Part shown: positions 3,226 through 58,486 of the stretch, piece by piece | How positions within the stretch are numbered: the stretch's first letter is position 1 | Layout of the letters: every line of letters begins with the position of its first letter | Origin: Halapricum desulfuricans | GTDB lineage: Archaea > Halobacteriota > Halobacteria > Halobacteriales > Haloarculaceae | Reading direction: 5' to 3' | DNA length: 64,000 nt | Assembly (NCBI RefSeq): GCF_017094525.1 | Contig: NZ_CP064788.1 | Span: 434,001 to 498,000, forward strand | Position numbers and translations under genes: made by a program | Notes under the pieces: generated by a model | What the model was told of the DNA's origin: nothing | Database searches by the model: none | The model's input: the letters and a program-made list of their open reading frames with translations, nothing else

Positions 3226-3416
3226 CACCGCTTGCGGTGCGGTCCGGGAATCCTCGCCGTCGTCGGGTGGTTCGAGAGAGCGAAGCTCTCTCGTCATCTG
3301 CTCACGGCGCTTTGCGCCGTTCGCAGGTTCGTGGGACTGGTCCCACGCTCATCACGAAAGGCGCTCGCGCCTTTCGAACGACTACGCCCGACTGCCCGAG
3401 GGATCTTCGATCCTTC
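3226..3416. repeat. Array of micro-hairpins (cassette cluster A)
   Basis: Six short palindromes lie in tandem: CACCGC/GCGGTG (3226-3239); CGAGAGAGC/GCTCTCTCG (3273-3293, loop GAA); ACGGCGC/GCGCCGT (3304-3320, loop TTT); GTGGGAC/GTCCCAC (3331-3346, loop TG); CGAAAGGCGC/GCGCCTTTCG (3355-3376, loop TC); GAGGGATC/GATCCTTC (3398-3416, one G-T pair). Linkers contain TCATC or CTCATCA. Each stem has a different sequence. The rest of 2999-3553 has no convincing gene; the long plus-strand frame across it is only open because of the hairpins. Confidence 0.75.
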
Positions 3417-3553
3417 TCCGTTTACGGCGAGGAGGTCCCAGAGAACAACGATACCGAGACACACTATCTGGACAACTATATGACTGATAAGGACTACTCG
3501 TTCGATCGAGCGGAGAGAACTCGGGCCGGACAGTCACAAAGGGGCCGGCAGTG

Positions 3554-4120
3554 CTACTCTTCGATCTCGACGTCAACGGCCTCGGTGGCCTGCTGCTGGA
3601 CGTCCTGGATCTGTGCCTGGATCTCTTCAGTCTGGTCCTTGAAGTCCTCGAACAGATCGGCCATCTGCTCGGTGGCATCGACGGACTGGGACTGGAGATC
3701 CTCGTGGGCCTCGGCGAACATCTCGACCTGCTGGTCGAGCGTCTCGACGTAGTCCTCGGAGAGCTCGTCGTAGGTTTCGACGCCGTCGGCGACCTCCGAC
3801 TCGATGGTCTCGAAGACGTCCTCGTGGTTCTCCAGCAGGAAGTCAATCTGCTCGTCGACCGTCTCGCGCAGCTGCTCGACGGTCGTCTCGCTACCGGGGA
3901 CGCTCTCCTCGACGGCGTCGAAGTAACTGTGGAACATCGTCCGGCTCAGCTCGACACCGCGGCGCTGGGCCGACGCCTGGCTCTCCACGCTGTCGAGCAT
4001 CGCCTGACTCATTCGCTGCTGGAACTGCAGGCCCTGTTCGAACGCCTGCTGGCTGTTCTCGAGCGCGCGTCGCTGCAACTCGAACGCGGTCGTGACGGGG
4101 GTCGTGTACGAATCACTCAT
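3554..4120 (-). CDS. Phasin-like coiled-coil protein
   Basis: 188-residue protein that is almost entirely helical, acidic and Gln/Glu-rich, with no Cys and no membrane segment. The start at 4120 (MSDSYTTPVTTAFELQRRAL) is preferred over one 17 codons upstream because the longer N-terminus is atypical and GGGAGTGAG precedes the inner ATG. The N-terminal amphipathic part (AFELQRRALENSQQAFEQGLQFQQ) resembles granule-binding phasins, and the C-terminal third is a heptad coiled coil. Proximity to phaC supports a PHA-granule surface role, but this is inference. Confidence 0.75.
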   Translation of the reverse strand: MSDSYTTPVTTAFELQRRALENSQQAFEQGLQFQQRMSQAMLDSVESQASAQRRGVELSRTMFHSYFDAVEESVPGSETTVEQLRETVDEQIDFLLENHEDVFETIESEVADGVETYDELSEDYVETLDQQVEMFAEAHEDLQSQSVDATEQMADLFEDFKDQTEEIQAQIQDVQQQATEAVDVEIEE

Positions 4121-4320
4121 CTCACTCCCATCTACAACCTTCGGACTGATAAAGGTTCCGTTTGTAACCATTAGATGGTTTCATATACCACTCAATGTCT
4201 TCCATCGAAGGAGCGGGCTGGCGGGCAGCGATAGTATCGTGGTTGCAGCGGTTCGAAGGACGCGTTGCTCACAATCGTCGTGACACAGATGCCGCCAGCG
4301 AACCAGGTATTGCCGACAGG

Positions 4321-4740
4321 TCAGATGTCGCCGATCGTGACGACGCGGTCGTCGTCTTCTCGTAGCTCCCGGGTGACTGTCCCCTCACGTCGCTCGTGGG
4401 TCTGGCCGCGCTCGCCGAGCACGATGAGATCGGCCCCGATCTCGTCGGCGTGCGCTTCGATCGTCTCTTCGGGGATCCCGTGACAGCAGGTCGTCTTCAC
4501 GGAGACGCCGCGCCGCCCGGCGGCCTCGGCGACCGCCGAGAGCACTTTCCGACCCCGGTCTTCCTCCTCGGCGACGATGACCTCGGTGCTGCTCAGGGCC
4601 GGCTCCCCAAACTCGTCGGTGTCCACGACGTACAGGGCGTGTAGCGTTGCGCCCTCGCGTTCGGCCAGCGCGATCGCGTACGCGGCCGCGCGCTGTCCGT
4701 GTTCGCTCCCGTCTGTCGGAATCAGAATCGTCTCGACCAT
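4321..4740 (-). CDS. UspA-family universal stress protein
   Basis: 139 residues with the single Usp fold: beta-1 ILIPTDGSE near residue 5, HALYVVD near 40, and the late segment ADLIVLGERGQ near 105. The nucleotide-binding G-2x-G-9x-G(S/T) motif is only partly kept (GERGQTHERREGTVT), so ATP binding is uncertain. It is monocistronic, and a TATATA-like element lies about 10-15 nt upstream of the start. Usp proteins respond to stress, but the partner is not evident here. Confidence 0.88.
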   Translation of the reverse strand: MVETILIPTDGSEHGQRAAAYAIALAEREGATLHALYVVDTDEFGEPALSSTEVIVAEEEDRGRKVLSAVAEAAGRRGVSVKTTCCHGIPEETIEAHADEIGADLIVLGERGQTHERREGTVTRELREDDDRVVTIGDI

Positions 4741-4849
4741 TGTGACCGATATATAGCGTCTCCAACAGGAAATAATGTGTGATCGGTTCCCACACGCTGA
4801 TAAAATTGCCGCCGTAACGGTTTGCTGAAGCCGATAGAGGGATGGTGGC

Positions 4850-6370
4850 CTACTCGAGCAGGCTCTCGCCGGTCATCTCATCGGGCTTGTCGATGGCCAT
4901 GAGTTCGAGCATCGTCGGCGCGATGTCGGCGAGCGTGCCGCCGCCTCGCACAGACCGGCTGCCGTCTGTGCCGTTCTCGTCGAGGTAGATGATCGGGACG
5001 TCGTTGAGTGTGTGGGCCGTGTGGGGGTCGTCCTCGGTGCCCAGATCGTCGGCGTTGCCGTGGTCGGCAGTGATCAGCAGGTCGCCACCGGCGGCCATGA
5101 CCGCCTCGGCGAGCCGACCCAGCTGTTCGTCGACCGCCTCGACGGCCGCGACCGCGGCGTCGAAGTCCCCGGTGTGGCCGACCATGTCCGGGTTCGCGTA
5201 ATTGAGGACCATCATGTCGGGGTCATCGCTTTCGATGTATTCGAGGGCCGTATCGGTCACCTCCGCACAGGACATCTCGGGCTGGTGGTCGTAGGTCGGC
5301 ACGTCCGGACTCTGGACGATCTCGCGCATCTCGCCCTCGAACTCGATCTCGCGGCCGCCGTTGAGGAAGTACGTCACGTGGGGGTACTTCTCGGATTCCG
5401 CGAGCCGAAGCTGGGTCTTGCCGGCCTCGGAGACGACCTCGCCGATCGTGTTGACGGGCTGGTTCGGCCCGTAAGCCACCGGCACGTCGAAGGTTTTGTC
5501 GTACTGGGTCATCGTGACATAGTACGTCTCCGGCGGCTCCAGGTCGTACTCCCAGTCTTCGGGGCGGATGCTGTTGAGCATCCGGGTGAGCTGGCGGGCA
5601 CGATCCGACCGGAAGTTGAAGAAGATCACGGCGTCGCCGTCCTCGAGGGCTTCGCCGCCCTCGATGGTCGTCGGCTCGATGAACTCGTCGGTCGTGTCGC
5701 GCTCGTAGGATTCGGTGGCCGCTTCGACGGCAGTCTCTGCGTGGTGGTCGCCCTCTCGGTCGACGATAGCGTCGTAGGCCCGTTTCGTGCGCTCCCAGTT
5801 CTGATCGCGGTCCATCGCGTAGTACCGGCCGGTCACGGTCGCGACGTCGCCGGTGCCGTTCTCGTCGATGACCGCCTGGAGCTCTGTCAGGTAGCCCTCG
5901 CCGCCGGTCGGTGAGGTGTCCCGGCCGTCCATGAACGCGTGGGTGACAGCCTCAACGCCGCGGTCGGCCGCCATCTCGATCAGCGCGTGCAGGTGCGTCT
6001 GGCGGGAGTGGACCCCGCCGTCCGAGACCAGCCCCATGAGGTGAACGGCCCCGTCGTGCTCGTCGGCGTAGTCCATCGCCGCGACGAGTTCGTCGTTCTC
6101 GAAGAACGTGCCGTCCTCGATGTCGTCGGTGATCCGGGTGGTGTCCTGCTTGACCACGCGGCCGGCCCCGATGTTCAGGTGGCCGACCTCGGAGTTGCCC
6201 ATCTGGCCCTCCGGCAGCCCGACGCGCCGGCCCGAGACCTCCAGGCGGTTGTGTGCACCGGCGTCCCAGTACGTCTCGAAGTTCGGCGTGTCCGCGGCGC
6301 GCACGGCGTCGCGGGCAGTTTCGTCGTCGTTCAGTCCCCAGCCGTCGAGGATTACGAGTCCGACGTCCAT
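4850..6370 (-). CDS. gpmI: 2,3-bisphosphoglycerate-independent phosphoglycerate mutase
   Basis: Interconverts 3- and 2-phosphoglycerate in glycolysis and gluconeogenesis using two Mn ions. 506 residues, the standard family length. Visible motifs are LVILDGWGL at residues 4-12, the phosphoserine region QMGNSEVGHLNIGAGR near residue 58, HAFMDGRDTSPTGG near 145, and the metal ligands ADHGNAD and HTAHTLNDVP near 440-460. The protein is highly acidic. It stands alone on the minus strand. Confidence 0.96.
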   Translation of the reverse strand: MDVGLVILDGWGLNDDETARDAVRAADTPNFETYWDAGAHNRLEVSGRRVGLPEGQMGNSEVGHLNIGAGRVVKQDTTRITDDIEDGTFFENDELVAAMDYADEHDGAVHLMGLVSDGGVHSRQTHLHALIEMAADRGVEAVTHAFMDGRDTSPTGGEGYLTELQAVIDENGTGDVATVTGRYYAMDRDQNWERTKRAYDAIVDREGDHHAETAVEAATESYERDTTDEFIEPTTIEGGEALEDGDAVIFFNFRSDRARQLTRMLNSIRPEDWEYDLEPPETYYVTMTQYDKTFDVPVAYGPNQPVNTIGEVVSEAGKTQLRLAESEKYPHVTYFLNGGREIEFEGEMREIVQSPDVPTYDHQPEMSCAEVTDTALEYIESDDPDMMVLNYANPDMVGHTGDFDAAVAAVEAVDEQLGRLAEAVMAAGGDLLITADHGNADDLGTEDDPHTAHTLNDVPIIYLDENGTDGSRSVRGGGTLADIAPTMLELMAIDKPDEMTGESLLE

Positions 6371-6537
6371 GCGAGAAAAGTTGACTCGCCAGCGTAATAG
6401 TTCTTCATATCTCTCCGGATCGCCGAAACGGGGCGTCGGGGGCGACTGTCCTCATCTGCCGTGACGGCGTTTCGGACGACTCCGGGCGACCGAGAACGTC
6501 GACTATCTTTATGAACGTATGGCGAGCAGTATGACGT

Positions 6538-6942
6538 ATGACAGAGATCCTCTCGGAGACGCTGGCCGACGAACTCGTCTCGATCGCGCGCACGGCGACC
6601 GGCGACAGCCTGCGCTCGGTGACGTATTTCAACCGGTCGAACTTCGAGCAGTTGTATCTCCGCAGCGACCTCGAACGCGACGCCGATCTCGACACGTTCG
6701 TCGGCCACGAGTGGCGCGGCTACCGCGACACCACCAACGCCTATCAGGCGACCGAGACCGAACTCGGCGCCTACCGGTACACCATTCGGGCGTTCGAGAA
6801 CGGCTACCTGCTGCGGGTCGGCACCGAGCGCTCGAGCGTCCTGCTGACGACCGACGACGTCACCATGCAGGAGTTCGAGGAAGTGGCCGAAGCCGTCAGT
6901 CGCAGTCTGGAATCCCATTCCGAGTCGAGCGATCACGAGTAA
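6538..6942 (+). CDS. Haloarchaeal protein of unknown function
   Basis: 134-residue soluble protein, MTEILSETLADELVSIART. It has a predicted alpha+beta pattern, with strands around SLRSVTYFNR, LYLRSDLE and YLLRVGTERSSVLLTTDD. An ATG-preceding TATA-like CTATCTTTATG lies about 30 nt upstream. The last residues (ESHSESSDHE) are a charged tail. It lies 66 bp before mutS in the same direction, so it may be cotranscribed with it. No functional motif is recognised. Confidence 0.75.
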   Translation: MTEILSETLADELVSIARTATGDSLRSVTYFNRSNFEQLYLRSDLERDADLDTFVGHEWRGYRDTTNAYQATETELGAYRYTIRAFENGYLLRVGTERSSVLLTTDDVTMQEFEEVAEAVSRSLESHSESSDHE

Positions 6943-7008
6943 CGCGACAGCGGCCGACCAGCGGGGCAACCGAGACACATATGCGTCGCGAGGGCCAGTC
7001 ACTCGGGC

Positions 7009-9639
7009 ATGGACGCGGCACTCGGAGCGCCGGAGAAGATGGCCGAACGGGCCGACGACCTGACGCCGATGATGGCCCAGTACTTCGAGTTGACCCGCGA
7101 GTACGACGACTCGCTCGTTCTCTTTCAGGTCGGTGACTTCTATGAGGCCTTCTGTGGGGCCGCCGAGCGAGTCGCCAGGCTCTGTGAGATCACGCTCACG
7201 AAACGCGAGGACTCGACCGGCGAGTACCCGATGGCCGGCATCCCGATCGACAACGCCGAGAGTTACGTCGAAACGCTGCTCGACGCCGGCTATCGCGTCG
7301 CCATTGCCGATCAGGTCGAGGATCCGGACGAGGTGAGCGGCGTCGTCGAGCGAGCGGTCACCCGGATCATCACCCCCGGGACGCTCACCGAGGACGAACT
7401 GCTGGGCGGGGCCGCGAACAACTACGTCGCCGCGCTGGCCCGCGAGAACGACCGCTACGGGCTGGCGATGGTCGACGTCTCGACCGGCGACGCCTACGCG
7501 ACCGGCAGCGACTCGCTGGCGACGATCGAGGACGAGCTCGGCCGGTTCGATCCCTCGGAAGCGATCGTCGGGCCCGACGCGCCGACCGACCCCTTCGAGT
7601 GTATGGTCACGCCGTACGACGAGCGCGCCTTCACCGCCGAGCGGGCACGCGAGCGGGTCGGCCGGTATTTCGGTCCGCCGGAGCGACTGCTCGCCAGCGC
7701 CGCGGAAGTGCGGGCCTGCGGCGCGCTGCTGGCATACGCCGAGTACACTCGCGGCGGCACCGGCGTCGGTGAGGACGGCCAACTGGCGTATCTCAACCAC
7801 CTCACACGGTACGATCCCCGCGAGTACATGGTCCTGGATTCGGTCGCGCTGGAGAGCCTGGAGGTGTTCGGCCGCCGGTCGGTCCGGAGTTCGGAGGGGC
7901 TGACGCTGGCCGAGGCCGTCGACGAGACCGCCTGCGCGATGGGACGGCGAGAGTTGACCGACTGGCTGCGCCGCCCGCTGATCGAGCGCGACCGGATCGA
8001 GGCCCGCCACGAGGCCGTCGCGGAACTCGTCGGCGCGGTCCGGACTCGCGAGCGCCTGCACGAGCGCCTGCGTGAGGTCTACGATCTCGAACGGCTGATC
8101 TCGCGCGTCTCGCGCGGCCGGGCGAACGCCCGTGACCTCAATTCGCTCGGCTCGACGCTGGCGGTCGTCCCCGACATACGGGCGGCGATCGAGGACAGCG
8201 ACAGCCGGAAACTCCGGGCGTTGCACGACCGGCTTGACGACCTGCCGGAGGTCCGGTCGCTGCTCTCGGAGGCGATCGCCGACGATCCGCCGCCGGAACT
8301 CACCGAAGGCGGCGTCATCGCGTCCGGGTACGACGAGACGCTCGACGAGCTGCGCGAGACCGAACGCTCGGGCAAGGCCTGGGTCGAGCGACTCGAGGCG
8401 CGCGAGCGCGACCGGACCGGCATCGACTCGCTGAAGGTCGGCCACAACTCGGTGCACGGCTATTACATCGAGGTGACCGACGCCAACCTCGATCGGGTCC
8501 CCGAGGACTATCAGCGCCGCCAGACGCTGAAAAACAGCGAGCGCTACTACACGCCGGAACTCAAAGAGCGCGAAGACGAGATCGTCAGGGCCGAACAGCG
8601 GGCCGACGACCGCGAGTACGAGCTGTTCGTCGAGGTGCGCGAGACCGTCGCCGCCGAGTCCGAACGCGTCCAGCGGCTGGCGGACGCCCTGGCGCAGCTC
8701 GACGTCCTCGTCTCCTTCGCGACCGTCGCCGCGGAGTTCGACTACGCCCGCCCGGAGATCGTCTCCGAGGGCATCGATATCGAAGCCGGTCGCCATCCGG
8801 TCGTCGAGCGGACCGAGGACGCGTTCGTCCCGAACGGTGCCAGCCTCGACCGTGACGACCGCGTGATGATCGTCACCGGGCCCAACATGAGCGGCAAGTC
8901 GACCTACATGCGCCAGATCGCGCTCACGGCGCTGCTCGCCCAGGCCGGGAGTTTCGTCCCCGCGGAACGCGCGCGCTTGCGTCTCGTCGATCGGATCTTC
9001 ACTCGCGTCGGCGCCAGCGACGACATCGCAGGCGGGCGATCGACGTTCATGATCGAGATGACCGAACTCGCCGAGATACTCGAGCACGCCACCGAGGACT
9101 CGCTGGTCCTGCTCGATGAGGTCGGACGCGGCACCTCGACGACGGACGGGCTCGCCATCGCACGCGCGGTGACGGAGTTCATCCACGACGAGGTGGGCGC
9201 GACGACGCTGTTCGCGACCCACCACCACGAACTCACCGACGTCGCCGAGCAACTCCCGGCGGTCCGCAACCGGCACTTCGAGACCAGTCGCGAGGACGGC
9301 GAGGTCGTCTTCGAGCACGAGGTCGCGCCCGGCGCGGCCGAGGCGTCCTACGGCGTCGAGGTCGCCGGCGTCGCCGGCGTTCCCCGGCCGGTCGTCGAGC
9401 GCGCGGCCGAACTGCTCGAAGACAGCGAGACGGTCCCCTTGGCGGACGAGGGCGGCGTCCCGGCTCGAACGAACGGGAGCGGGGACGCCGAGCGGGGTCA
9501 CGAACATTCGGACTCGATGGCAGCGACTGAAACTGACGCGATCCGCGAGCGCCTGCGCGAGGTATCGATCGCCGAGACGACGCCGCTGGAGGCGCTGCGG
9601 CTGCTCGCCGAGTTGCAATCGAAACTCGAAGCGGAGTAG
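7009..9639 (+). CDS. mutS: DNA mismatch repair protein MutS (first paralogue)
   Basis: Mismatch-recognition ATPase. 876 residues with all MutS1 domains: mismatch reader [11 protein letters not shown] (Phe-x-Glu wedge) near residue 40, connector, lever and clamp, then the ATPase. The Walker A motif is [13 protein letters not shown] near residue 625, Walker B is [13 protein letters not shown] near 700, and ATHHHELTD follows. The linker after residue 810 is low-complexity. A second MutS1-type gene lies at 59526. No mutL is present in the window. Confidence 0.95.
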
Positions 9640-9669
9640 CGACCTGCGACGCGACCGCGCTCGGTCCGG

Positions 9670-23896: not shown

Positions 23897-25189
23897 TCAA
23901 GTGGTTCGAGAGACTCCGTCTCTCGTCATCACGGAAGACGACGTCTTCCGTACGACCCCGGGGCTTCCTGCTTCAACGACGCGCTTTGCATCCACAGCCT
24001 CTCGCTGAGGTGTGAACGTAGGGAGCGCAGTCTGCACAGGCGTTGATTCGGAGCGTCCCGCCCCTAACTGCTTGAGTCCTCGATGAAGAATATTCTTCGC
24101 CGCGTTGAGGTCGCGGTCGTCTGTATGGCCGCACGCCGGGCATGAATGTTCGCGCACCCAGATTGGCTTGGCCGTCTCGACACCACACACAGCGCACTCT
24201 TTCGTCGTGCCTTCCGGCTTCACCTTTTCGACGTGCGTGCCGTGTAGGTCAGCCTTGTATTCCAGTAGGTCAAGAAACCGCGACCACGCCGCGTCTTGCT
24301 TGTTTTTGCCGTTCTGACTGGTTTCCAGCATCGGCTTCACGTCCAAGTCTTCGACGGCCACAACATCGTACTCTGTGACCAGCCACGTCGTCAACTTGTG
24401 CTGATAGTCCAGCACCTTCCGCTTGATTGTCCGTTTCGCTTGTGCTACTTTTCGGCGTTGTTTCTCCCAGTTGGCAGAGCCGTGTTCTTTCCGGTCGAGT
24501 TTTCGCTGCTCGCGTGCATAGCGGTCGTACTCGTCGGACAGGTCAAGCGTATCCACGGACAGATTTTCAGACGTGTGGATGTAACTGGTAATGCCAAGGT
24601 CAACACCAACACAATCTTCGGGTTCGATCTCACTCAATGGCGGTCTCTCGGGTGTGTCTTCCACAGTAGTCACGAGTGAGACGTACCACTCGCCAGTTGT
24701 CTCTTTCTTGAGAATAACCTCGTCAATGTCGTCTGCTGGCGGTACGTCACGTTCTGCGCGAATCTTGAACCAGCCAATCTTTTCGAGTCGGAGTCGTATG
24801 AATCGGTCGTCGCCCGTGTTGTAATCCACGTTCCAGCGACAGGGTTGATTGTACGACACTGACCGAAATTCGCCTGCACCCTGCCACCGCAACCGCCCAA
24901 CATCGTAGCCTTCGTTTCGGCGTTCTTGCAGTGTCTCAAGGTCGTCGTGAATCTGGCTTATTGCCTGTTGTGCGGCGTGTTGTGACGGGTCGGCAAAGGT
25001 CGGCCATTTGTCAGTCCACTCTGTGAGCTTGTCATGTTGGTCGTAGTCAGATGTCTGGTCGTTGTATTCACTGCGGTAGTAGTCTCGGACAGCGTGATTG
25101 CGAATCTGCCGGAGAATGTCGATGTGCTGCCACGCTTCGCTGGCCACGTCATCGGGCAGGTACGCACGGAAGCGAAGCGTGTGTTTCAT
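23897..25189 (-). CDS. tnpB: TnpB RNA-guided nuclease (RuvC/OrfB_Zn_ribbon)
   Basis: 430 residues with all key residues present. The RuvC triad is Asp197 (CVGVDLGITS), Glu280 (VAVEDLDVKP) and Asp360 (DDRDLNAAKN). The zinc ribbon is Cys332/335 (CAVC) and Cys350/353 (CPAC). TnpB nucleases use a guide (omega) RNA made from the element's 3' end, here the left side around 23880-24000, and cut DNA to favour element retention. The C-terminal 20 residues after EAGSP are encoded by the hairpin cassette in the end stem-loop and are atypical: related tails end GA-stop at this point. It starts 5 nt after the AbrB-type gene stop. Confidence 0.92.
   Translation of the reverse strand: MKHTLRFRAYLPDDVASEAWQHIDILRQIRNHAVRDYYRSEYNDQTSDYDQHDKLTEWTDKWPTFADPSQHAAQQAISQIHDDLETLQERRNEGYDVGRLRWQGAGEFRSVSYNQPCRWNVDYNTGDDRFIRLRLEKIGWFKIRAERDVPPADDIDEVILKKETTGEWYVSLVTTVEDTPERPPLSEIEPEDCVGVDLGITSYIHTSENLSVDTLDLSDEYDRYAREQRKLDRKEHGSANWEKQRRKVAQAKRTIKRKVLDYQHKLTTWLVTEYDVVAVEDLDVKPMLETSQNGKNKQDAAWSRFLDLLEYKADLHGTHVEKVKPEGTTKECAVCGVETAKPIWVREHSCPACGHTDDRDLNAAKNILHRGLKQLGAGRSESTPVQTALPTFTPQREAVDAKRVVEAGSPGVVRKTSSSVMTRDGVSRTT
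23901..23953. repeat. Micro-hairpin cassette in the TnpB element end-loop (cassette C)
   Basis: Two perfect palindromes: CGAGAGAC-TCC-GTCTCTCG (23907-23925) and ACGGAAGAC-GAC-GTCTTCCGT (23931-23951), joined by TCATC. They occupy the loop of the element's terminal stem. The equivalent loop at 54346-54350 is only CTTGA, so this is an insertion of about 53 bp. It displaces the tnpB reading frame end, and the stop TGA at 23897-23899 is on the far side. Confidence 0.8.
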
Positions 25190-34097: not shown

Positions 34098-35370
<1,273 letters not shown>

Positions 35371-39949: not shown

Positions 39950-40640
39950 CTAGTTCAGCACCACCTCAGCTGGAGGCGAGCCATCTAACGCTTGGTTCGG
40001 TCGATTGCGGTTATAGTAGTGTCTGAAGCGTCTGAGGTAGCGTTTTGCGCTTGACTGACTGCCCGCCAGAATGGGTGGCTGCGGTCGATCCGCATGGTAA
40101 CAGTCTGGAACTACTTTTCCATATGGTTCTGGTTGTGGTAGTTGAGATGACCGCTCAAATCGTGACGAGAGAGCAGTTAGATAGCCACCAGCATCGACGC
40201 GAAACCCGGTGTTGGCGACGTCATATCTCTCGCTGAGACGATGCAGGAACGCCGTCCTCAGAAATCAGAGATCTCTGATGTGCGAACGAGAGCGTCGCTC
40301 TCGTTAACGTCGCGGGGTCGGTCTCGCGGCGGCTGAACACGTCTGCTTCCAGCAGGAGCTTTGGCTCTGTGTCGATGGCAGCGTAAAGCCACTTCTTTTC
40401 GCCGCCTACTTCGGTTTGTCTCTTATCGGTCGTGACCCGCAACGGCGACGCCGTCGGCGGGTCAATCTGTGTTTCAACAAGCGTTTTTTCCAGTACCAGA
40501 TTCCATGGTGACAGCGGTCGACACCCAACCAGTCTAAGACAGCCTCGATTTCATGTAACGACAACCCCATCGAGTGAAGTCGAACCGCGAAATAACGGAC
40601 GGATGTCGGTGTACGCTCGTTCTTCCAAGTGTCTTGATTA
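39950..40640 (-). pseudogene. IS6-type transposase relic, multiply frameshifted
   Basis: Reading right to left on the minus strand: ERTPTSVRYFAVRLHSMGLS and HEIEAVLDWLGVDRCHHGIW (about 40520-40620), then LRVTTDKRQTEVGGEKKWLY and AAIDTEPKLLLEADVFSRRE (about 40325-40440), and finally RRFRHYYNRNRPNQALDGSP plus PAEVVLN-stop (39950-40030). The order and motifs (WLYAAID, YYNxNRPNQALDG) are those of IS6-group DDE transposases. Frames are broken and the central region is displaced by the micro-hairpin cassette at 40264-40305. Confidence 0.8.
40264..40305. repeat. Micro-hairpin cassette in the IS6 relic (cassette D)
   Basis: ATCAGAGATCTCTGAT (40264-40279, no loop) and AACGAGAGCG-T-CGCTCTCGTT (40285-40305), linked by GTGCG. 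Same two-palindrome build as the cassettes at 23.9, 56.6 and 57.65 kb, with unrelated stem sequences. It interrupts the transposase reading frame after VFSRRETDPA. Confidence 0.72.
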
Positions 40641-43596: not shown

Positions 43597-43597
43597 A

Positions 43598-51655: not shown

Positions 51656-51937
51656 TCACGCTCCGTCGTCGACTTCGACCTCGAAATCGTCGAGCGTTTT
51701 GCCCTGTCGGACGAGCTTCTCCGCGACGACGAGTTTCTCCATGCGACCGAGTCGCCCCCAGTCGAGTTCCGCCGGGGGCGACTCCTCGAACGCTTCGTAC
51801 TGTTCGAGGACCCCTCCGTGAACGAACCGCGCGAACTCGCCGCAGTTCGGACACCGGATCGAGAAGTGAGAGACGTCGTACTCGCGGGTCAGCGTGTGAT
51901 CGAGACAGTTCGTACAGCGATAGGTGACGGTCGGCAC
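51656..51937 (-). CDS. Zinc-ribbon haloarchaeal protein
   Basis: 93 residues from the GTG at 51937 (MPTVTYRCTNCLDHTLTREY). Four-Cys zinc ribbon: CTNC near 8 and CPNC near 29 with SHFSIRCPNCGEFARFVHGG. The C-terminal part is helical (LGRMEKLVVAEKLVRQGKTL) and acidic (DDFEVEVDDGA). Possibly nucleic-acid-binding. The function is unknown. It is followed on the other side by thiD-thiN on the same strand. Confidence 0.78.
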   Translation of the reverse strand: MPTVTYRCTNCLDHTLTREYDVSHFSIRCPNCGEFARFVHGGVLEQYEAFEESPPAELDWGRLGRMEKLVVAEKLVRQGKTLDDFEVEVDDGA

Positions 51938-52014
51938 TGATCGTGGTACGTACCGCAGACGTTTGATTCCAGCGGAGGGGACAGCGGCGCGAACCGGACG
52001 GCCGAGAGCAGTGG

Positions 52015-53316
52015 CTATTCGATCGTTTCGGCCAGCGTCACGACGCGTTCCCGCAGCGCGGGCGCGCGTTCGGCGAGGACGATCGTCGAGTCCGTTCGGT
52101 GATCGAGCAGTGCGACCGTCTCCGGGCCGAGCCGTTCCTCGACGCGGCCGGGACCGCCGTTGCGTTCGAGGACGACCGTCTCCCAGCCCAGTTCGTCGAG
52201 CGCCGTCTCGATCCGCGAACCGTTGCGACACCGGCAGGCAAAGGACAGGTCGGGCCGTTCCTCGCGGGCGTTGAGCAGGAGTTCGGCGGTCCGGCCGGAC
52301 GCGCCGAAGCGGACGCCGCGGTTCGGGCGCAGCCCCGACAGCGTCCGGGCGACCCGCCCCTCGACGGCGGCCACCTCGTGTTCGTGCTCGGCGTAGGGCG
52401 TTGCCCCGACCACGTCGAGCCCGGCCGAATCGACGACGGACGTGACGTCCCGGTCGATCAGCGCGGCGACGATCCCCTCGACGGTCTCGGCGGTCCGTTC
52501 GCGGGCGGCCCGGTCGCGCGCCTCGACGGTGTGATGCACCGCGCCCGGGCCTCCGCCGACGTCGAGGTTGTACCGGATCGCCCGCGAGAGCAGGTCGACC
52601 CCCGACTCGACGGCCGCCGTGAGGTCGTCGCCATGGGCCAGCCGCGTCGCGACCGCGCTCGAGAGCGTACAGCCCGAGCCGTGTGTCGCGTTCGTCTCGA
52701 CCCGTGGATGGCGGATCGTCGTCACGTCGTCGGCCGTGACCAGCACGTCGGTCACCTCGGGGATGGGGATGTGGCCGCCCTTGACCAGCGCGGCGTCGGA
52801 ACCGAGTTCCACGAGCTGTTCGCCCACCTCGCGGGCCTCGCCCTCGTTTTTGGGATTGATCCCCGTCAGGACGGCCGCCTCGTCGGCGTTGGGCGTCACG
52901 AGCGTGGACTCGGCGATCAATTCCTCGTAGACCTCTTCGGCGTCGGGTTCGAGCAGCCGGTCCCCGGAGGCGGCGACCATCACCGGATCGACTACGAGGT
53001 TCGGCAGGCGATCGGCGTAATCGACGACCGTCTCGATCACGTCCGCGGTCGCGAGCATCCCCGTCTTGACCGCCGCCACGTCGAAGTCCTCGAGCACGGC
53101 GTCGATCTGCGCCTCGATGTCTTCGATCGGGAGCAGATGCGAACCCCGGACACCCTGTGTGTTCTGTGCGGTGACGCTGGTGATCGCGCTCGTCCCGAAC
53201 GCGCCACCGGCCTCGATCGTCTTGAGATCGGCCTGAATCCCGGCCCCGCCGCCGGAGTCGCTGCCCGCGATCGTCAACACGACTGGCGGCGACACGGGTG
53301 CTTCGTCTCGTGCCAT
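52015..53316 (-). CDS. thiD: Bifunctional HMP/HMP-P kinase with ThiN thiamine-phosphate synthase domain
   Basis: 433 residues from the ATG at 53316 ([20 protein letters not shown]). ThiD domain 1-255: [56 protein letters not shown] and [16 protein letters not shown]. The ThiN domain 265-430: [38 protein letters not shown], then [20 protein letters not shown]. In archaea ThiN replaces bacterial ThiE, condensing HMP-PP with thiazole phosphate. No riboswitch is obvious upstream. Confidence 0.93.
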
Positions 53317-53393
53317 ACCTGTCTCTATTCTCGGGCGATACAAAGCGGTGGTGGAACGGTCGGCTTTTCGGTTCGGCGACCGTGTTCGCTCGC

Positions 53394-53495
53394 ATGGAGA
53401 CGTGGGACGACCTCTTCGAGCGCGCCCGGGCCTACGGGACGACGGTCGAGGCGATCCGTGAGGCGCTTGCTGCCCGGCGGGTGGACGATGACTGA
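53394..53495 (+). CDS. 33-aa protein overlapping a PIN-like gene
   Basis: METWDDLFERARAYGTTVEA then IREALAARRVDDD: a single helical, acidic mini-protein. The ATG at 53394 starts the unit that overlaps the next gene start (ATG at 53488) by 8 nt, so translation is coupled. It could be an antitoxin-like or chaperone partner for the PIN-like protein; this is inference from arrangement only. Confidence 0.6.
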   Translation: METWDDLFERARAYGTTVEAIREALAARRVDDD

Positions 53496-53958
53496 CGGAT
53501 CGCCGGCCCGGGTCGTCGCCGACGCGGACGTACTCGCGGCGGACCTGCTCGTCGGTGGCCCGGCCCGCGAGGCGCTCGATCACGTCCGTCGCCACTCCTG
53601 GATGACGCTGCTGGCTAGCGACCCACTTCTCGAGGACACCGAGGCGGTCGTGGCCGAACTCGCCGACCCGGCGCTCGGGGCCGTCCACCGCGAGCGACTG
53701 GCGGCGGCGACGGAGCGCGTCGACCATCCAGCGGACGACCACCCGGCGCTGGCGACGGCCTACCGGGGCGGTGCCGGGCAGTTGCTGAGTTACGACGAGT
53801 CGCTCCGATCGGCGAAGACGGGGATGTCCGTCCAGCCACACGCGAACCTGAGCGTCCGTCCCCCGGACGCGTTCGCCCGCCTGTTCGACCCCGAGAGCCT
53901 CTACGAACTGGTCGAGGGCGACTCGTATCCCGGCCCGGACAGCGATCCGCGCGCGTAG
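53488..53958 (+). CDS. PIN-like haloarchaeal protein
   Basis: 156 residues, MTDGSPARVVADADVLAADL. Acidic residues fall where PIN nucleases keep them: Asp12/Asp14 (VADADVLAADLL), Glu residues in LEDTEAVVAELAD, Asp in DDHPALATAY and Asp in LLSYDESL. Not all are conserved positions that I can check. The end FDPESLYELVEGDSYPGPDS is a family signature. Translationally coupled to the 33-aa gene upstream. Confidence 0.75.
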   Translation: MTDGSPARVVADADVLAADLLVGGPAREALDHVRRHSWMTLLASDPLLEDTEAVVAELADPALGAVHRERLAAATERVDHPADDHPALATAYRGGAGQLLSYDESLRSAKTGMSVQPHANLSVRPPDAFARLFDPESLYELVEGDSYPGPDSDPRA

Positions 53959-54091
53959 CGACCACCTCACGACGGCAAAACGTCTCCTGCCCACAGTACC
54001 AGATCTGATACTGCTGTGGTTCCGTTTCGAGACCGGGGCGCGCTCGGTCAGTCGGTTCGAGAAGGTATTTAGAGGCGGTTCGAGGCGAATG

Positions 54092-54112
54092 CCACGGGGC
54101 TTGACCCCGTGG
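54092..54112 (+). repeat. Orphan IS1341-type end hairpin
   Basis: CCACGGGG-CTTGA-CCCCGTGG. Same build and same CTTGA loop as the hairpin at 54337-54359, with a changed outer stem. It is followed by GATGAAGCCGACAGCTCGTG. No coding tail of tnpB is recognisable upstream, so it is a remnant, or the other end of a small deleted element. Confidence 0.6.
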
Positions 54113-54242
54113 ATGAAGCCGACAGCTCGTGAACCAAATCATTAAGTCGAACTACTTTAAACAGAGAAGTGTGACGGCACCCATCGCGTCTGGCTTAGAG
54201 TCCAAAAACACGGGCGGTCAGACGCTCTGTCGTCATCACCGA

Positions 54243-54359
54243 GTAGGTCAGGGAGGGGCCGAATCCACGCCTGCGGAGACTGCGCTCCCTGTGGATTCCC
54301 TTGTGGAATCTGTAAAGCGCGTCGTGGAAACAGGAAGCCTCGGGGCTTGACCCCGAGGC
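54243..54359 (+). pseudogene. tnpB: tnpB 3' relic with intact end hairpin
   Basis: Reads VGQGGAESTPAETALPVDSL then VESVKRVVETGSLGA-stop (54243-54350), the C-terminal tail of a TnpB; the intact copy at 23.9 kb reads AGRSESTPVQTALP and AKRVVEAGSPG. The stop TGA lies inside the loop of the end hairpin GCCTCGGGG-CTTGA-CCCCGAGGC (54337-54359). Everything upstream of the tail is missing. In TnpB elements this end specifies the guide-RNA scaffold, so a relic may still encode a scaffold. Confidence 0.78.
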
Positions 54360-54372
54360 ACTTCACACAGCC

Positions 54373-55458
54373 ATGCACGATTTCGTCGTCGTCGGAGCGG
54401 GACCGGCCGGCTCGCGGTTCGCACGCCGGGCTGCCGAGATTGGCCACGACGTGGTCGTCTTCGAGCAGGGGGCGATCGGCGAGCCGCTGGCGTGTTCGGG
54501 CCACGTCAGCACCGATATCTGGGCGTTCACGCCCGACGGTTCGCGCGACGCGCTGCTCCAGAACGAGATCTACGGCGCGCGGTTCCGGCTCGGCGGTCCC
54601 GACAGCGAGGCCTACCCCTTCTACAAGGAGTCGGTCGTCTCGAACGTCATCGACCGCGTCGGGCTCGATCGCCGCCTCGCCCAGGCCGCCCGCGGTGCAG
54701 GCGCGGACGTCCGAGACCACCACACGGTCACCGCAGTCGAAGAGCACCGCGACCGCGTCGAAGTCACGGTTCGCGGTCCCGACGGCGTCGAAACGCACGA
54801 GGCGCGGCTGGTCGCCGGCGCGGACGGCCCGCGCTCGAAAGTCCGGAGCGAACTCGGACTGCCCGAACCTGGGGAGACACTGCACGGCGTGCTGGGCTTC
54901 GAGGCGTCGCCCGACGACGCGGACTTCGTCGACGTGCACCTGACCGTCCCCGGGTTTTTCGCCTGGCGGATCCCCCGCGGCGAGGCCGGCGTCGAGTACG
55001 GTCTCGCGGCCAGCCCCGGCGCGGAGGTCGGCGAGTGGTTCGAGGCCTTTACCGACAGCTACGGCGCGACGACGACGAACCGCTGTTCGGGATTGATCCC
55101 GGTCGGCCCGCCCGAAACGGTCACGGGCGGGCGTGCGTTTCTGGTCGGCGACGCCGCCGCCCAGACCAAGCCGTTCACCGGCGGCGGAATCCGCTACGGC
55201 ATGCTCGCGGCCGATCGGGCCGCCGAGACGGTCGATCCCCACGACCCGGCAACGCTCGCGGACTACGAGTCGGCCTGGCGATCGGAACTGGGCCGGGAGA
55301 TCCGACTGGGGGCGTGGATCCGGCGTGGATACTCGCTTCCACAGGCTATCCAGCGGCTCGGGCTGGGTCTCTTTTCGGGCGAGATCGGCGTCCATATGGA
55401 CGAACCGTCGACGCTGTTCTCCCGCGAGCAACTGCGGGCGATGTTCTCGCGGTCGTGA
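54373..55458 (+). CDS. FAD-dependent geranylgeranyl reductase family protein
   Basis: 361 residues. Rossmann FAD motif VVVGAGPAGSRFARRAAE (residues 5-22), CSGHVSTDIW near 40, VAGADGPRSKVRSELGLP near 148, and FLVGDAAAQTKPFTGGGIRYG near 255. Family members saturate geranylgeranyl chains of archaeal lipids or prenyl quinones. The specific substrate is not given by the sequence. The ATG is 13 nt after the tnpB relic hairpin, so the promoter of this gene may lie within the relic. Confidence 0.9.
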   Translation: MHDFVVVGAGPAGSRFARRAAEIGHDVVVFEQGAIGEPLACSGHVSTDIWAFTPDGSRDALLQNEIYGARFRLGGPDSEAYPFYKESVVSNVIDRVGLDRRLAQAARGAGADVRDHHTVTAVEEHRDRVEVTVRGPDGVETHEARLVAGADGPRSKVRSELGLPEPGETLHGVLGFEASPDDADFVDVHLTVPGFFAWRIPRGEAGVEYGLAASPGAEVGEWFEAFTDSYGATTTNRCSGLIPVGPPETVTGGRAFLVGDAAAQTKPFTGGGIRYGMLAADRAAETVDPHDPATLADYESAWRSELGREIRLGAWIRRGYSLPQAIQRLGLGLFSGEIGVHMDEPSTLFSREQLRAMFSRS

Positions 55459-55497
55459 ACGGACGGGCGACTCACGATCGGCACCCGGTCGTCTCGG

Positions 55498-56496
55498 TCA
55501 CGTATCGGGAATCCGCCGTGACTGCTGTCCCCCTTCGACGAACGGCAGAGGCGTTTTCTCGACCGCTATTCGTCCGCCGTCGTGGGCTTCAACGGTCGTC
55601 GGCTCGCCCGCGACGACCGCGAAGGCGATCGGCTCGCCGAGCGTCGGACTCTCCAGTGCTCGCGTGACAGCTCCGATCGCATCTCCGTCCTCGTAGACGG
55701 TCGCACCGGCATCGGGCACGACGTCGGGCGCGAGTCCGATCAGCCGCCGTCCCTCCTCGTCGCCGTGCCGGGCGAGCACGGACGGAGCGTTGCCGTCCAG
55801 TTCCGTCTCGAACAGCGGCGTTCCGGCCTCCAGCGTCAGCGACTCCCAGGTCCGATAGCCGAACGGCGCGGCGTTGAGCCCCCGGTTGACCAGCGTGTCG
55901 AACACGCGCTCGGCGTCGTCGACCCCGCAGACGACCTCGTACCCCGCCTCGCCGGTCGGAGCGTCGCTCGCGATGACTGTCACGCCCTCGTCGCCCATCG
56001 ACCCTCGAACGAACGTGTGGGCCGGCTCCGGCGCGCCGCCGCCGGTCGAGAGGACGCTCGCGACCTTCTCGGTGGCCTGGCCGCCGTGGACGCCGAAGAT
56101 CGCCAGTTCGCCGGTCAGATCGGTACTCTCGACTCCTGTATCCGCCAACGCCCGATCGAACCGGTCGCCGCGGCCGGGCGCGAGCAGGGCCAGCAGCCGT
56201 TCGCCGGCGTTGTAGACGTGCGCGTCGGCGGCGATCGCCCCGTCGTTGAGGACGAACCCGTAACGGCCCTCCTCCTCCGACTGCGGCACGTCAGCGGTAA
56301 TCGCGCGCCCGACGGCTGCGATTCTGTCTGGGCCGGTCACCGCCCGGATGTCGTAGCCCATCTCGATCACGCCGGCGACGTTGCGAACCGCCCGGTGGGT
56401 CCGTTCCGGGCGGCCGTAGTCGGCGACGACTCGCTTGCCCCCGACCGATCGGAACGTCGCCCCGTGGTCCTCGTGGATGCCCTCGATGACGCTCAT
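55498..56496 (-). CDS. GcvT/YgfZ-family folate-binding protein
   Basis: 332 residues, MSVIEGIHEDHGATFRSVGG. The N-terminal RVVADYGRPERTHRAVRNVA replaces the GcvT catalytic region. LTGELAIFGVHGGQATEKVA and GYRTWESLTLEAGTPLFETEL match GcvT-fold segments. The YgfZ KGCYxGQ motif is absent. Glycine-cleavage T protein is one option, but the usual partners gcvH and gcvP are not in the window, so a tetrahydrofolate-dependent or iron-sulfur repair role is also open. Confidence 0.82.
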   Translation of the reverse strand: MSVIEGIHEDHGATFRSVGGKRVVADYGRPERTHRAVRNVAGVIEMGYDIRAVTGPDRIAAVGRAITADVPQSEEEGRYGFVLNDGAIAADAHVYNAGERLLALLAPGRGDRFDRALADTGVESTDLTGELAIFGVHGGQATEKVASVLSTGGGAPEPAHTFVRGSMGDEGVTVIASDAPTGEAGYEVVCGVDDAERVFDTLVNRGLNAAPFGYRTWESLTLEAGTPLFETELDGNAPSVLARHGDEEGRRLIGLAPDVVPDAGATVYEDGDAIGAVTRALESPTLGEPIAFAVVAGEPTTVEAHDGGRIAVEKTPLPFVEGGQQSRRIPDT

Positions 56497-56602
56497 GGCG
56501 GGTGGTGGGGCGGCGTGGAAAAGAAGGTTCGCAGACGCGCGACTGCTGTCATGGCGAATATCGTCAGGGATCTAAACGAAAGGCAGCGCGAGTTCCCCGC
56601 CC

Positions 56603-56658
56603 TTCCGAAAACCTACGGTTTTCGGCTTTCGCAAATCTTCGATTTGCGTCAACACCGT
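56603..56658. repeat. Micro-hairpin cassette in the IS200/IS605 left end (cassette E)
   Basis: CCGAAAACC-TAC-GGTTTTCGG (56605-56625) and CGCAAATC-TTC-GATTTGCG (56630-56648) lie inside the loop of the terminal stem CCCCGCCC/GGGCGGGG. The right end of the same element has only a 6-nt loop. Same architecture as the cassette at 23.9 kb, with different stem sequences. Confidence 0.78.
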
Positions 56659-56676
56659 GGGCGGGGGTGAAGCGCG

Positions 56677-57084
56677 TCACTCCGGCGCGTGTTCCGTCTC
56701 TTCAATATACCGTTCAACCACTTCCTCCGATACTGCTCCCGTCGTTCCCACGTAGTACCCAACCTTCCAGAATCCGCCACCCCAGAAATACGACTCCCTA
56801 ATTTCGGGATTCCGTTCCAGCAAGTGCTTACCCGAGTACGACTTGAATTGGCGAGCGATGTCCGCCGGACTGTGCTTCGGGTCACACTGGACGAACAGGT
56901 GTACGTGGTCGTCCGCAATCTCCAACGCCAGAATCTCGTGTCCGAAGTGGTCAGCAGTCTCACCAAACAACTCTCGCACATCGTCTTCCACTACACCAAG
57001 AACCGGGTGGCGGTACTTGGGACACCAGACGAAGTGATACTTACAGGAACTAACCAAATGCGCGTGACTGCGGTACTCTTCCAA
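56677..57084 (-). CDS. tnpA: IS200/IS605 family TnpA (Y1 HUH transposase)
   Basis: 135 residues from a TTG start (MEEYRSHAHLVSSCKYHFVW). The HUH metal motif is ADDHVHLFVQ near residue 60, and the catalytic Tyr is likely in WKVGYYVGTTG near 110. It transposes single-stranded circles with hairpin ends. It appears intact. Divergent from tnpB with about 45 bp between. Confidence 0.93.
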   Translation of the reverse strand: MEEYRSHAHLVSSCKYHFVWCPKYRHPVLGVVEDDVRELFGETADHFGHEILALEIADDHVHLFVQCDPKHSPADIARQFKSYSGKHLLERNPEIRESYFWGGGFWKVGYYVGTTGAVSEEVVERYIEETEHAPE

Positions 57085-57128
57085 CCCTAACCCCTACATT
57101 TATGACAGTCTGGAACGATTGTCAAAGT

Positions 57129-58486
57129 ATGGGTGAGGAAGCCACGAAAACCATTCAGACGCGCCTTCACATAGCGTCTGGTGAACGGTCGTGGCTTCAC
57201 GACGCCCGCCTCGCATCACGCGAGATATTCAACCAAACAATCCGCTTCAAACAACAAGGGTACAATCGAACCGAGATACAGAAGGAGGTTGACCGCGATG
57301 ATTTCTTGCGAAACAACAAGTGCGCGGTCGTCAGCAAAGCCCTCCAAACGTGGAAATCCTACCAGTCACTTCTTGACTGGTGGCGTGAACAGGATGACCC
57401 TGATGGCGGCAAGCCGACACCGCCAAGCACGGACAAATCTGGTTCGTACCCGCTCGTGATGGCGCACACGGAAGGCTACCGCCTTACCGTTGACGACGAC
57501 ACGAACCGCGTCCAAGTCCGCATCAGCCCGAAACCCTACAAGAAGGTGAAGGGCCATCTGCGCGGCGAGCCGGACGCGATGGACGAACTTCGAGACGCCA
57601 TCACGTCGGATGAGGTGGATGTGGGGCAGGCCGAACTCCTGTCTCGAAAATCGAAGATTTTCGACGAGTCATCGAAGTGCTCCGCACTTCGAGATACCGC
57701 GATGGCGTGTACTACCTACACGTCACGGTCACACGCGAGTTCGACGTGCCCGAACCCGACACCGCTGATACTGTGGTCGGCGTAGACATCAACGAGCGCA
57801 ACGTCGCACTTACCGCCCTTGACCGTGAGACGATGCGGACGAAAGGGACACTCGTCCTTGACTACGGGCGAGTGAAGCAGGAATGTCAACGCTACCACAC
57901 TATCACCACTCGCTGTCAGGAACACGGCAAGACGAGCATCCACCACAGACTCGGTGACAAGGAAGAGCGGTTCACCGAGTGGGTGTTGCATCGGCTCTCC
58001 CGTGCTGCCGTGGAGTTCGCAGAACAGTTCTCGAATCCGGTTATCGTGTTCGAGGATATGAGCGGCATCCGCGACGAAATCAAGTACGGGTCGTATATGA
58101 ACCGTCGATTGCACAAACTGCCGTTCCACAAGTTCGAAAAGTTCGTCTCGTACAAGGCGACGTGGCGAGAGATTCCCACGGACACGGTGGACGCCTATTA
58201 CAACTCGAAGACGTGTTCGTGCTGTGGTGAGCGTGGGTATCGTCAGGGACGGCGGTTTCGGTGTACGAACGACGAGTGTGACGTGGTGCAAGACCACGCC
58301 GACCGGAATGCGTCGGTGAACATCGCGTGGCGCGAGAAGGCAAAACTCGACGGCAACGAATCAGATTACCGGACTCACAAAACCCAGCCGCAAGTTCGGC
58401 TGGTGCGTCTGTCCGGGTCGGGGCGAGTAAGCCGCCCAACCTCATCCCGCTCGCTTGCCGAGCAGGGAGTGCTAGCGCACGGCTGA
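57129..58486 (+). pseudogene. tnpB: tnpB interrupted by a micro-hairpin insertion and frameshift
   Basis: Frame 1 runs from 57129 (MGEEATKTIQTRLHIASGER) to QAELLSR near 57650. The second frame resumes DGVYYLHVTVTREFDVPEPD near 57695 and ends at 58486. Between them lies a two-palindrome insertion. All catalytic parts are in the second half: VVGVDINERN, VIVFEDMSGIRD, zinc Cys pairs CSCCG and CTNDEC, and QDHADRNASVN. Without the insertion it would be a full RNA-guided nuclease of about 440 residues. It is now probably dead. Confidence 0.88.
57645..57691. repeat. Micro-hairpin cassette inside tnpB (cassette F)
   Basis: CGAAAATC-GAA-GATTTTCG (57645-57663) and CGAAGTGC-TCC-GCACTTCG (57673-57691), linked by ACGAGTCAT. 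It falls between the conserved tnpB segments GQAELL and RDGVYYLHV and shifts the frame. This is direct evidence that the cassette entered a formerly intact gene. Confidence 0.85.

What the first reader, a model, noticed from the sequence alone, without database searches (positions are those of the whole stretch)
3226..57691. Family of sequence-diverse, structure-conserved paired micro-hairpin cassettes
At least five places carry the same build: two perfect palindromes, each with 7-10 bp arms and a 0-4 nt loop, spaced 5-10 bp, often with TCATC between (3273-3376 twice, 23907-23951, 40264-40305, 56605-56648, 57645-57691). The stems share no sequence with each other. Conserved shape without conserved sequence argues against a normal MITE and suggests DNA made by self-templating, such as fold-back synthesis, or a family recognised by structure. 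Three copies sit within IS200/IS605-type elements, one beside an orphan end hairpin of that type, and one in an IS6 relic. I know of no described element with these properties.
Basis: partly seen in the sequence, partly recalled or inferred. Interest (0 to 1): 0.9.

Follow-up and report, generated by a model that had tools for sequence, protein, structure and literature searches.

The report
Mobile double-hairpin DNA elements in haloarchaea
Salt-loving archaea carry tiny (about 50-115 base) DNA inserts made of two or four perfect hairpins, which lodge precisely in other mobile elements and whose hairpin tips are rewritten and flipped over evolution while staying perfectly paired.

Summary
The window has 8 paired perfect palindromes against 0.6 expected. 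Each reported site is a precise 50-114 bp insert, and empty alleles lacking the insert, or an uninserted copy of the same end hairpin, were found. They are not one sequence-free family. They are at least four sequence families (A-D), each with conserved linkers and variable, compensated hairpins. Family A (TGGTTCG[hp]CGTCATCACG[hp]CGWACGA) occurs in 127 of 196 genomes of the order, with zero reversed-pattern hits. Among 282 family-A hairpins, 97.5% of arm pairs are Watson-Crick with no G-U excess. C-G to G-C swaps occur at one shared insertion site. Loops form a reverse-complement-symmetric set, and homologous copies differ by exact loop inversion. That is the published signature of replication template switching between inverted-repeat arms. 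No target duplication is evident, and inserts prefer end hairpins of IS200/IS605 elements. These traits match the 'SMR-A' small mobile repeats of Haloquadratum walsbyi (2011, mobilisation 'enigmatic'), and mitochondrial double-hairpin elements are an analogue. New here: the order-wide spread, two-hairpin architecture, stem and loop turnover, and a nested four-hairpin form. Verdict: new variant of a known kind. Mobility is well supported, template-switch turnover is likely, and the enzyme is unknown; 35 of 60 genomes without a detectable Y1 transposase carry family A.

The parts
3268..3381 (+). Family A element, four-hairpin form (114 bp): TGGTTCG-hp1-CGTCATC-[TGCTC-hp3-TTCGCAGGTT-hp4-CTCATC]-ACG-hp2-CGAACGA, inserted in hairpin GTCGGG|CTACGCCCGAC
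   Evidence: Sequence; own-genome two-hairpin copy L004 lacks the inner 55 bp; copies of the host hairpin with no cassette in L026, L040, L055; folds z=-6.8
3299..3353 (+). Inner hairpin pair (55 bp) absent from L004; flanked by TCATC direct repeats, so either a nested insertion/duplication or the segment deleted to make the common two-hairpin form
   Evidence: Comparison with L004; four-hairpin core in 7 of 196 genomes against 127 for the two-hairpin form (the four-hairpin pattern was stricter)
23902..23955 (+). Family A element, two-hairpin form (54 bp), in the loop of the right-end hairpin of a tnpB element (CCCCGGGGTCAAG|CCCCGGGG)
   Evidence: 31 cassettes at the same site in 23 genomes and 17 genera; unoccupied end hairpin of the same type at window 54337-54359
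40253..40309 (+). Family D element (about 55 bp), CGTCCYCAG-hp-CTGRTGTGCGAACG-hp-CGTYAACG, inside an IS6-type transposase relic
   Evidence: Absent from the IS6 copy of the same chromosome (G000:C1:936124, L270) and from L291, L292, L293, L295, L306
56603..56652 (-). Family C element (50 bp), TTGACGC..GCGAAAGCCG..CGGAA, in the loop of the left-end hairpin of an IS200/IS605 element
   Evidence: Absent from the homologous left ends in Halobacterium GSL-19, Haloplanus and Natronorubrum plasmids; 14 copies in 9 genomes
57642..57694 (+). Family B element (53 bp), TCTCGA..TCGACGASTCNTCGA..TCGAGA, inside tnpB, which shifts its frame
   Evidence: Homologous tnpB genes in relatives and plasmids lack it; identical in same-genus G002; a 54-bp in-frame version in G171 and G205
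56677..57084 (-). tnpA (Y1 transposase) of the host IS200/IS605 element
   Evidence: PF01797 1.5e-38
57102..58486 (+). tnpB of the host element, frame broken at the family B insert
   Evidence: TNB domain in the downstream part; ORFs
58365..58551 (+). tnpB 3' end / sense overlapping transcript (sot2652) and right end of the host element
   Evidence: Rfam RF02657, 182 bits
23897..25189 (-). tnpB carrying the family A insert at its right end
   Evidence: PF07282, PF01385

Best explanation
They are very small non-autonomous mobile elements of haloarchaea, SMR-like, built of two (sometimes four) adjacent perfect hairpins joined by conserved linkers and ended by short inverted repeats. Shown: each is a discrete insert with no clear target duplication; several families are dispersed over the order; many copies sit in the loops or stem tips of end hairpins of IS200/IS605-type elements. 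Shown: the linkers are conserved while the hairpin tips differ between copies with both arms changed together and the loop often exactly inverted. Inferred: on single-stranded DNA (lagging strand, or the transposon ends while folded) the hairpins form, and DNA polymerase switches template between the arms; this repairs or rewrites an arm to a perfect match and flips the loop. Inferred and weaker: insertion also happens on folded single-stranded DNA, through an enzyme supplied in trans that has not been identified.
For: Excess over shuffles. Empty alleles or uninserted host copies for the window inserts. Family A in 127 of 196 genomes, reversed-pattern control 0; every palindromic match examined in genome contigs is haloarchaeal or an uncultured archaeon, while the bacterial hits are non-palindromic chance matches. 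Arms: 231 of 282 hairpins perfect, 63 mismatches in 2554 pairs, A.C 25, G.T 15, other 23, so no wobble excess on this strand. At one shared site, 31 cassettes show C-G to G-C swaps that stay paired. Copies with homologous flanks: 17 two-sided compensated changes against 5 one-sided and 1 unpaired. Loops: GAA 48/TTC 44, GGA 34/TCC 38, AAA 17/TTT 12. Of 10 homologous-flank pairs differing at all three loop bases, 6 are exact reverse complements, from three separate cases: L297/L299 AAA-TTT, L242 against others TTC-GAA, L282/L286 AGA-TCT; non-hairpin control slots differ at all three bases in 3 of 420 pairs. The own genome holds family C copies with loops GTA and TAC. Joined flanks form a perfect hairpin (arms >=7) at 23% of family A sites against 4% for shuffled flanks. 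Arm homogenisation plus spacer inversion is the published signature of template switching between inverted-repeat arms (PMC8604942; PMC8794818).
Against: No transposition was observed, and close-strain presence/absence pairs were not examined beyond species level. The family searches fixed the linkers, which favours young copies and exaggerates the stem/linker contrast. Whole stems recur in different positions (for example CGAGACGCC, CGAGAGAGC), so exchange of hairpins between copies could produce part of the diversity. Loops in the wider set are near saturation, so only a few inversions can be placed between homologous pairs. Selection for C-GNA-G loops on either strand could keep the loop set symmetric. 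For family D a 2-4 bp target duplication (CG or CGTC/AACG) is not excluded.
Confidence: 0.7

Rival explanations
1. Structured RNA elements (for example part of the tnpB guide/sot RNA or terminators) whose stems covary through ordinary selection for RNA pairing.
For: Several copies lie in tnpB 3' ends, which overlap sot/guide RNAs. The stems covary.
Against: Mismatches are not G-U rich on the scored strand (G.T 15 against A.C 25). Loops are reverse-complement symmetric, which no single RNA strand would prefer. Many copies lie outside tnpB, including in an IS6 relic and inside coding frames. No Rfam family matches the cassettes.
Confidence: 0.1
2. Stem diversity comes from shuffling of whole hairpins between copies (ectopic conversion through the shared linkers and feet), with selection for stable hairpins, and not from fold-back synthesis.
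For: A limited vocabulary of stems recurs in both hairpin positions and in several families; L208 hp1 equals L180 hp2 exactly.
Against: It does not explain exact loop inversion in copies with otherwise identical stems and flanks, or the excess of all-three-base loop changes. Family C keeps its stems constant in most copies while its loops vary.
Confidence: 0.25
3. REPIN-like elements mobilised by a Y1 (IS200/IS605 or RAYT-type) transposase.
For: Two hairpins with inverted termini, insertion without target duplication, close tie to IS200/IS605 ends. Family A counts correlate weakly with Y1 genes (rho 0.20, p 0.009).
Against: 133 family A cassettes lie in 35 of 60 genomes with no detectable Y1 gene, one (99% complete) with 18 copies. 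No GTAG or CGTC tag was recognised at an unpaired end by inspection. Stems and loops are freely variable, and no copy was seen to flank a Y1 gene of its own.
Confidence: 0.2
4. Independent de novo origin of each paired palindrome by fold-back synthesis, with no mobile family.
For: Perfect arms and loop inversion point to fold-back synthesis acting on them.
Against: Long conserved linkers and ends in over 100 genomes, identical insertion coordinates relative to the element, and lineage-specific subfamilies.
Confidence: 0.03

Closest known systems
SMR-A small mobile repeats (HqIRS42, HqIRS43, HqIRS55) of Haloquadratum walsbyi (PMC3119063)
   Same: About 110 bp (the four-hairpin form here is 114 bp), inverted terminal repeats, no target duplication, several families without mutual sequence similarity, insertion into near-terminal palindromes of IS605-type elements and PATEs, unknown mobilisation.
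   Different: Mostly two-hairpin, 50-60 bp; found across the whole order; body made of perfect hairpins with variable compensated stems and inverting loops, which that paper's text does not describe; also in an IS6 relic and in coding sequence. HqIRS sequences could not be compared directly; the four-hairpin query finds only a 30-base match in a Haloquadratum genome.
Mitochondrial double-hairpin elements (DHE; Allomyces, Schizosaccharomyces) and repetitive hairpin-forming elements (PMC10085805, PMC2800124)
   Same: Two adjacent hairpins, potentially mobile, no flanking duplications reported for Allomyces.
   Different: Mitochondria of fungi and sponges, unrelated sequences, no tie to IS200/IS605 ends; several fission-yeast DHEs are identical between species.
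REP/REPIN super-families, GTAG- and CGTC-tagged (PMC3733652)
   Same: Short palindromes in dimers, sometimes inserted in palindromic targets or in frame in genes; CGTC type without known transposase.
   Different: Bacterial; defined by an unpaired GTAG or CGTC tag and family-specific stems and loops; the tag is not recognised here.
PATEs and MITEs of haloarchaea (PMC3119063)
   Same: Non-autonomous, near-terminal palindromes, no target duplication for PATEs.
   Different: PATEs appear to be deletion derivatives of IS605 elements and keep their ends; the cassettes are separate inserts inside those ends.
Rickettsia palindromic elements (reviewed in PMC10969869)
   Same: Palindromic insert carried in frame inside coding genes (the 54-bp family B version in tnpB of two genera).
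   Different: About 150 bp, bacterial, unrelated sequence; here mostly outside genes.

Membership tests
SMR-A small mobile repeats | Inverted terminal repeats unrelated to a known transposase element | tested here: inconclusive
   Inverted ends are present: family A TGGTTCG / CGWACGA, family B TCTCGA / TCGAGA. Relation to known transposon ends was not searched systematically
SMR-A small mobile repeats | No target duplication | tested here: met
   Families A, B and C: empty and filled alleles differ by the insert alone, at most 1 bp ambiguous. Family D ambiguous by 2-4 bp
SMR-A small mobile repeats | Insertion within near-terminal palindromes of IS605-type elements or PATEs | tested here: met
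   Window 23902 and 56603, and many family A sites; not all copies do so
SMR-A small mobile repeats | Length about 110 bp | tested here: inconclusive
   Four-hairpin form 114 bp; the common form is 50-60 bp
SMR-A small mobile repeats | Sequence similarity to HqIRS42/43/55 | not testable with these tools
   HqIRS sequences are in a supplement that is not held; only a 30-base match in a Haloquadratum genome
REP/REPIN (GTAG or CGTC tagged) | Unpaired GTAG or CGTC tag at one end of each hairpin | tested here: not met
   Family A-D consensus ends lack such a tag by inspection
REP/REPIN (GTAG or CGTC tagged) | RAYT gene flanked by the repeats (GTAG type) | not tested
   Only Y1_Tnp presence per genome was tested: absent from 35 genomes that carry family A
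Classical MITE | Target site duplication and conserved body derived from or matching a DDE element | tested here: not met
   No clear duplication for A-C; the body is variable hairpins
Template-switch-maintained inverted repeats | Arm homogenisation together with spacer inversion | tested here: met
   criteria from PMC8604942. A pattern match, not an observed event
Mitochondrial double-hairpin elements | Mitochondrial location and homologous sequence | tested here: not met
   Archaeal chromosomes and plasmids only

The most novel reading that the evidence does not exclude
An order-wide class of mobile elements that needs no dedicated transposase: hairpin DNA copied by fold-back template switching during replication both rewrites its own stems and is inserted into the loops of other hairpins, so insertion and sequence turnover are the same replication error.
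Probability: 0.15. Interest if true: 0.88.

Novelty: new variant of a known kind. Interest (0 to 1): 0.6.

Why it matters
Small mobile repeats that target IS605 elements in haloarchaea were described in 2011 with an 'enigmatic' mobilisation. This work gives elements of that kind a defined anatomy, an order-wide host range, exact ends, and a measurable turnover process. Hundreds of copies with conserved linkers form a natural experiment for measuring how often replication template switching creates, repairs and inverts hairpins. They also alter the ends and 3' RNAs of TnpB elements, and so may affect those guide RNAs.

Tried and rejected
Rfam search for a known RNA family at the cassettes: none, only sot2652 and a tRNA. 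Viral contigs with the family A pattern: 6 hits, none with palindromic stems. Dependence on a resident Y1 transposase: weak correlation only, many carriers without one. G-U enrichment as a sign of RNA selection: not seen. Testing exact-inverse loops against the saturated loop pool: the 12-base-context set gives 12 of 71 pairs after removing strand duplicates (one search counted both strands), which is not clearly above what the loop frequencies themselves would give, so I rely on homologous-flank pairs instead. Looking for the same elements in a Haloquadratum sample gave few pairs (4 against 1.3 expected) and did not recover a clear SMR-A equivalent.
Full report
Check of the observation. The five places were read directly. 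A scan for perfect palindromes (arms >=7, loop <=5, spacing <=15) finds 8 pairs in the window against a mean of 0.6 (maximum 2) in 40 dinucleotide shuffles. Seven of these belong to the reported sites; the eighth (35211-35264) lies in coding sequence and may be chance. In a spread sample of 400 kb of the same 2.89-Mb chromosome there are 3 pairs (1.2 expected with the settings used there), and at least two of them are relatives of the elements described below. The window is therefore locally rich, and core sequence does not carry the pattern. Single-strand DNA folding gives two clean hairpins per cassette in families A-C, with z-scores of -3 to -7 over all the pieces folded.

The pairs are insertions. 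(i) 57642-57694: homologous tnpB genes in relatives and in Halobacterium, Haloplanus and Natronorubrum plasmids lack exactly these 53 bp (CTCCTG|TACCGC); the same-genus genome G002 has them. (ii) 56603-56652: 50 bp in the loop of the left-end hairpin of the same IS200/IS605 element; L061 reads CCCCGCCCACGGTG|GGGCGGGG. (iii) 40253-40309: about 55 bp in an IS6-type relic, absent from an IS6 copy in the same chromosome and in other genomes. (iv) 23902-23955: 54 bp in the loop of a tnpB right-end hairpin CCCCGGGGTCAAG|CCCCGGGG; an unoccupied end hairpin of the same type stands at 54337-54359. (v) 3268-3381: 114 bp in the hairpin GTCGGG|CTACGCCCGAC, a hairpin that is unoccupied in L026, L040 and L055; a copy elsewhere in the same chromosome (L004) is near-identical in plan but lacks the inner 55 bp, which is bounded by TCATC repeats. 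Thus 3273-3376 is one four-hairpin element, and the two-hairpin form is either its deletion derivative or its parent. The two-hairpin form is far commoner (127 against 7 of 196 genomes, although the four-hairpin pattern was stricter).

Families. Linkers and ends are conserved and define at least four families. A: TGGTTCG[hp]CGTCATCACG[hp]CGWACGA. B: TCTCGA[..]TCGACGASTCNTCGA[..]TCGAGA. C: TTGACGC[..]GCGAAAGCCG[..]CGGAA. D: CGTCCYCAG[..]CTGRTGTGCGAACG[..]CGTYAACG. Family A is found in 127 of 196 genomes of the order, up to 28 copies in one genome, with no hit for the reversed pattern. Insertion of A is at G|C, with no duplication. Joined flanks form a perfect hairpin with arms >=7 at 23% of sites against 4% after shuffling flanks. 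Family C occurs in both the left-end and right-end hairpins of one IS in G006.

How the hairpins change. In 141 family A copies, 231 of 282 hairpins are perfect and 97.5% of 2554 arm pairs are Watson-Crick. Mismatches are A.C 25, G.T 15, other 23, so there is no G-U excess that would point to selection on an RNA of this strand. At a single insertion site (tnpB right end) 31 cassettes from 23 genomes and 17 genera keep identical linkers (fixed by the search) while stem positions switch between C-G and G-C and stay paired. Pairs of copies with homologous flanks show 17 two-sided compensated differences against 5 one-sided and 1 unpaired. Loops are three bases in most hairpins and form a set that is symmetric under reverse complement: GAA 48/TTC 44, GGA 34/TCC 38, AAA 17/TTT 12. 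Two thirds (187 of 282) are GNA or its complement TNC, counted from the table; C-GNA-G triloops are known as exceptionally stable DNA hairpins (from general knowledge, not tested here).

Loop inversion is seen at homologous places. Family C in the window's own chromosome has loops GTA and TAC in two copies. L297 and L299 (two species of the genus) differ AAA/TTT within a family D element with matching flanks. L282/L286 differ AGA/TCT, and L242 differs from four relatives TTC/GAA. Of 10 homologous pairs differing at all three loop bases, 6 are exact reverse complements, whereas three-base slots outside hairpins differ at all three bases in 3 of 420 pairs. Among the looser set of contexts the inversion count is not clearly above what the saturated loop frequencies give, so the case rests on the homologous pairs. 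Arm homogenisation with spacer inversion is the signature described for template switching between short inverted repeats (PMC8604942), and template switching has been argued to create and maintain hairpins (PMC8794818).

Mechanism. Shown: discrete insertion without a clear duplication (family D ambiguous by 2-4 bp), dispersal over the order, target preference for hairpins at IS200/IS605 ends, and compensated change of stem tips with loop inversion. Inferred with fair confidence: template switching between arms on single-stranded DNA. Inferred weakly: insertion on folded single-stranded DNA by a trans-acting enzyme. A resident Y1 transposase is not sufficient as an explanation, because 133 family A cassettes lie in 35 of 60 genomes without a detectable Y1 gene and the correlation of counts is weak (rho 0.20); past activity is not excluded. 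Recurrence of whole stems in different positions (L208 hp1 equals L180 hp2) suggests exchange between copies as a second source of diversity.

Effect on the host element. The window copy of family B breaks the tnpB frame (53 bp). In G171 and G205 the same site carries a 54-bp version that leaves tnpB open with 18 extra codons; the two versions differ in the tip of the second hairpin. So tip turnover can switch the reading frame, although the direction of that change was not established.

Comparison with what is known. Haloquadratum walsbyi SMR-A repeats (about 110 bp, inverted terminal repeats, no target duplication, insertion within near-terminal palindromes of IS605-type elements and PATEs, mobilisation 'enigmatic') are the closest match. 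Their sequences could not be compared here, and the text of that paper does not describe variable compensated hairpins. Mitochondrial double-hairpin elements are alike in shape and, for Allomyces, in lack of duplication. Bacterial GTAG/CGTC REPs share dimers and palindromic targets but are defined by tags that I do not find. I therefore call this a new variant of a known kind. The literature library holds only open-access papers, so an earlier description in a subscription journal cannot be ruled out.

Noticed in passing
L240 and L242 (G171, G205), tnpB: The family B insert is 54 bp there and keeps tnpB open with an 18-residue insert (SRKSKIFDESSKCHGTSR), while the window copy is 53 bp and shifts the frame.
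   Followed up: partly
window 58365-58551: Intact sot2652 sense-overlapping RNA at the 3' end of a tnpB whose reading frame is broken upstream.
   Followed up: no
L009 847-890 and 2700-2743; L251: One IS200/IS605 copy in G006 carries family C in both end hairpins with different loops; L251 joins the left flank of one type to the right flank of the other, as a core deletion between the two cassettes would.
   Followed up: no
all families, L001-L329: The 5' arm of nearly every hairpin is purine-rich and ends in C before the loop; a small vocabulary of tips (AAATC, GAGAGC, GACGC, GGCGC) recurs across families with different outer stems.
   Followed up: partly
L340 17157-17200 (Haloquadratum J07HQW1) and L282-L287: A family-A-like cassette and family D cassettes occupy nearly the same tnpB 3' position (GAATCAACG|CCTGTGCAGACTGCG) in different genomes; this position is empty in the window near 24040.
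   Followed up: no
L015, L016, L017, L019, L031, L051: Further clusters of two to five adjacent perfect hairpins, some with linkers unlike families A-D, so more families probably exist.
   Followed up: no
window 54092-54359: Remnant of an IS200/IS605-type element with two end hairpins and little between them, resembling a PATE.
   Followed up: no
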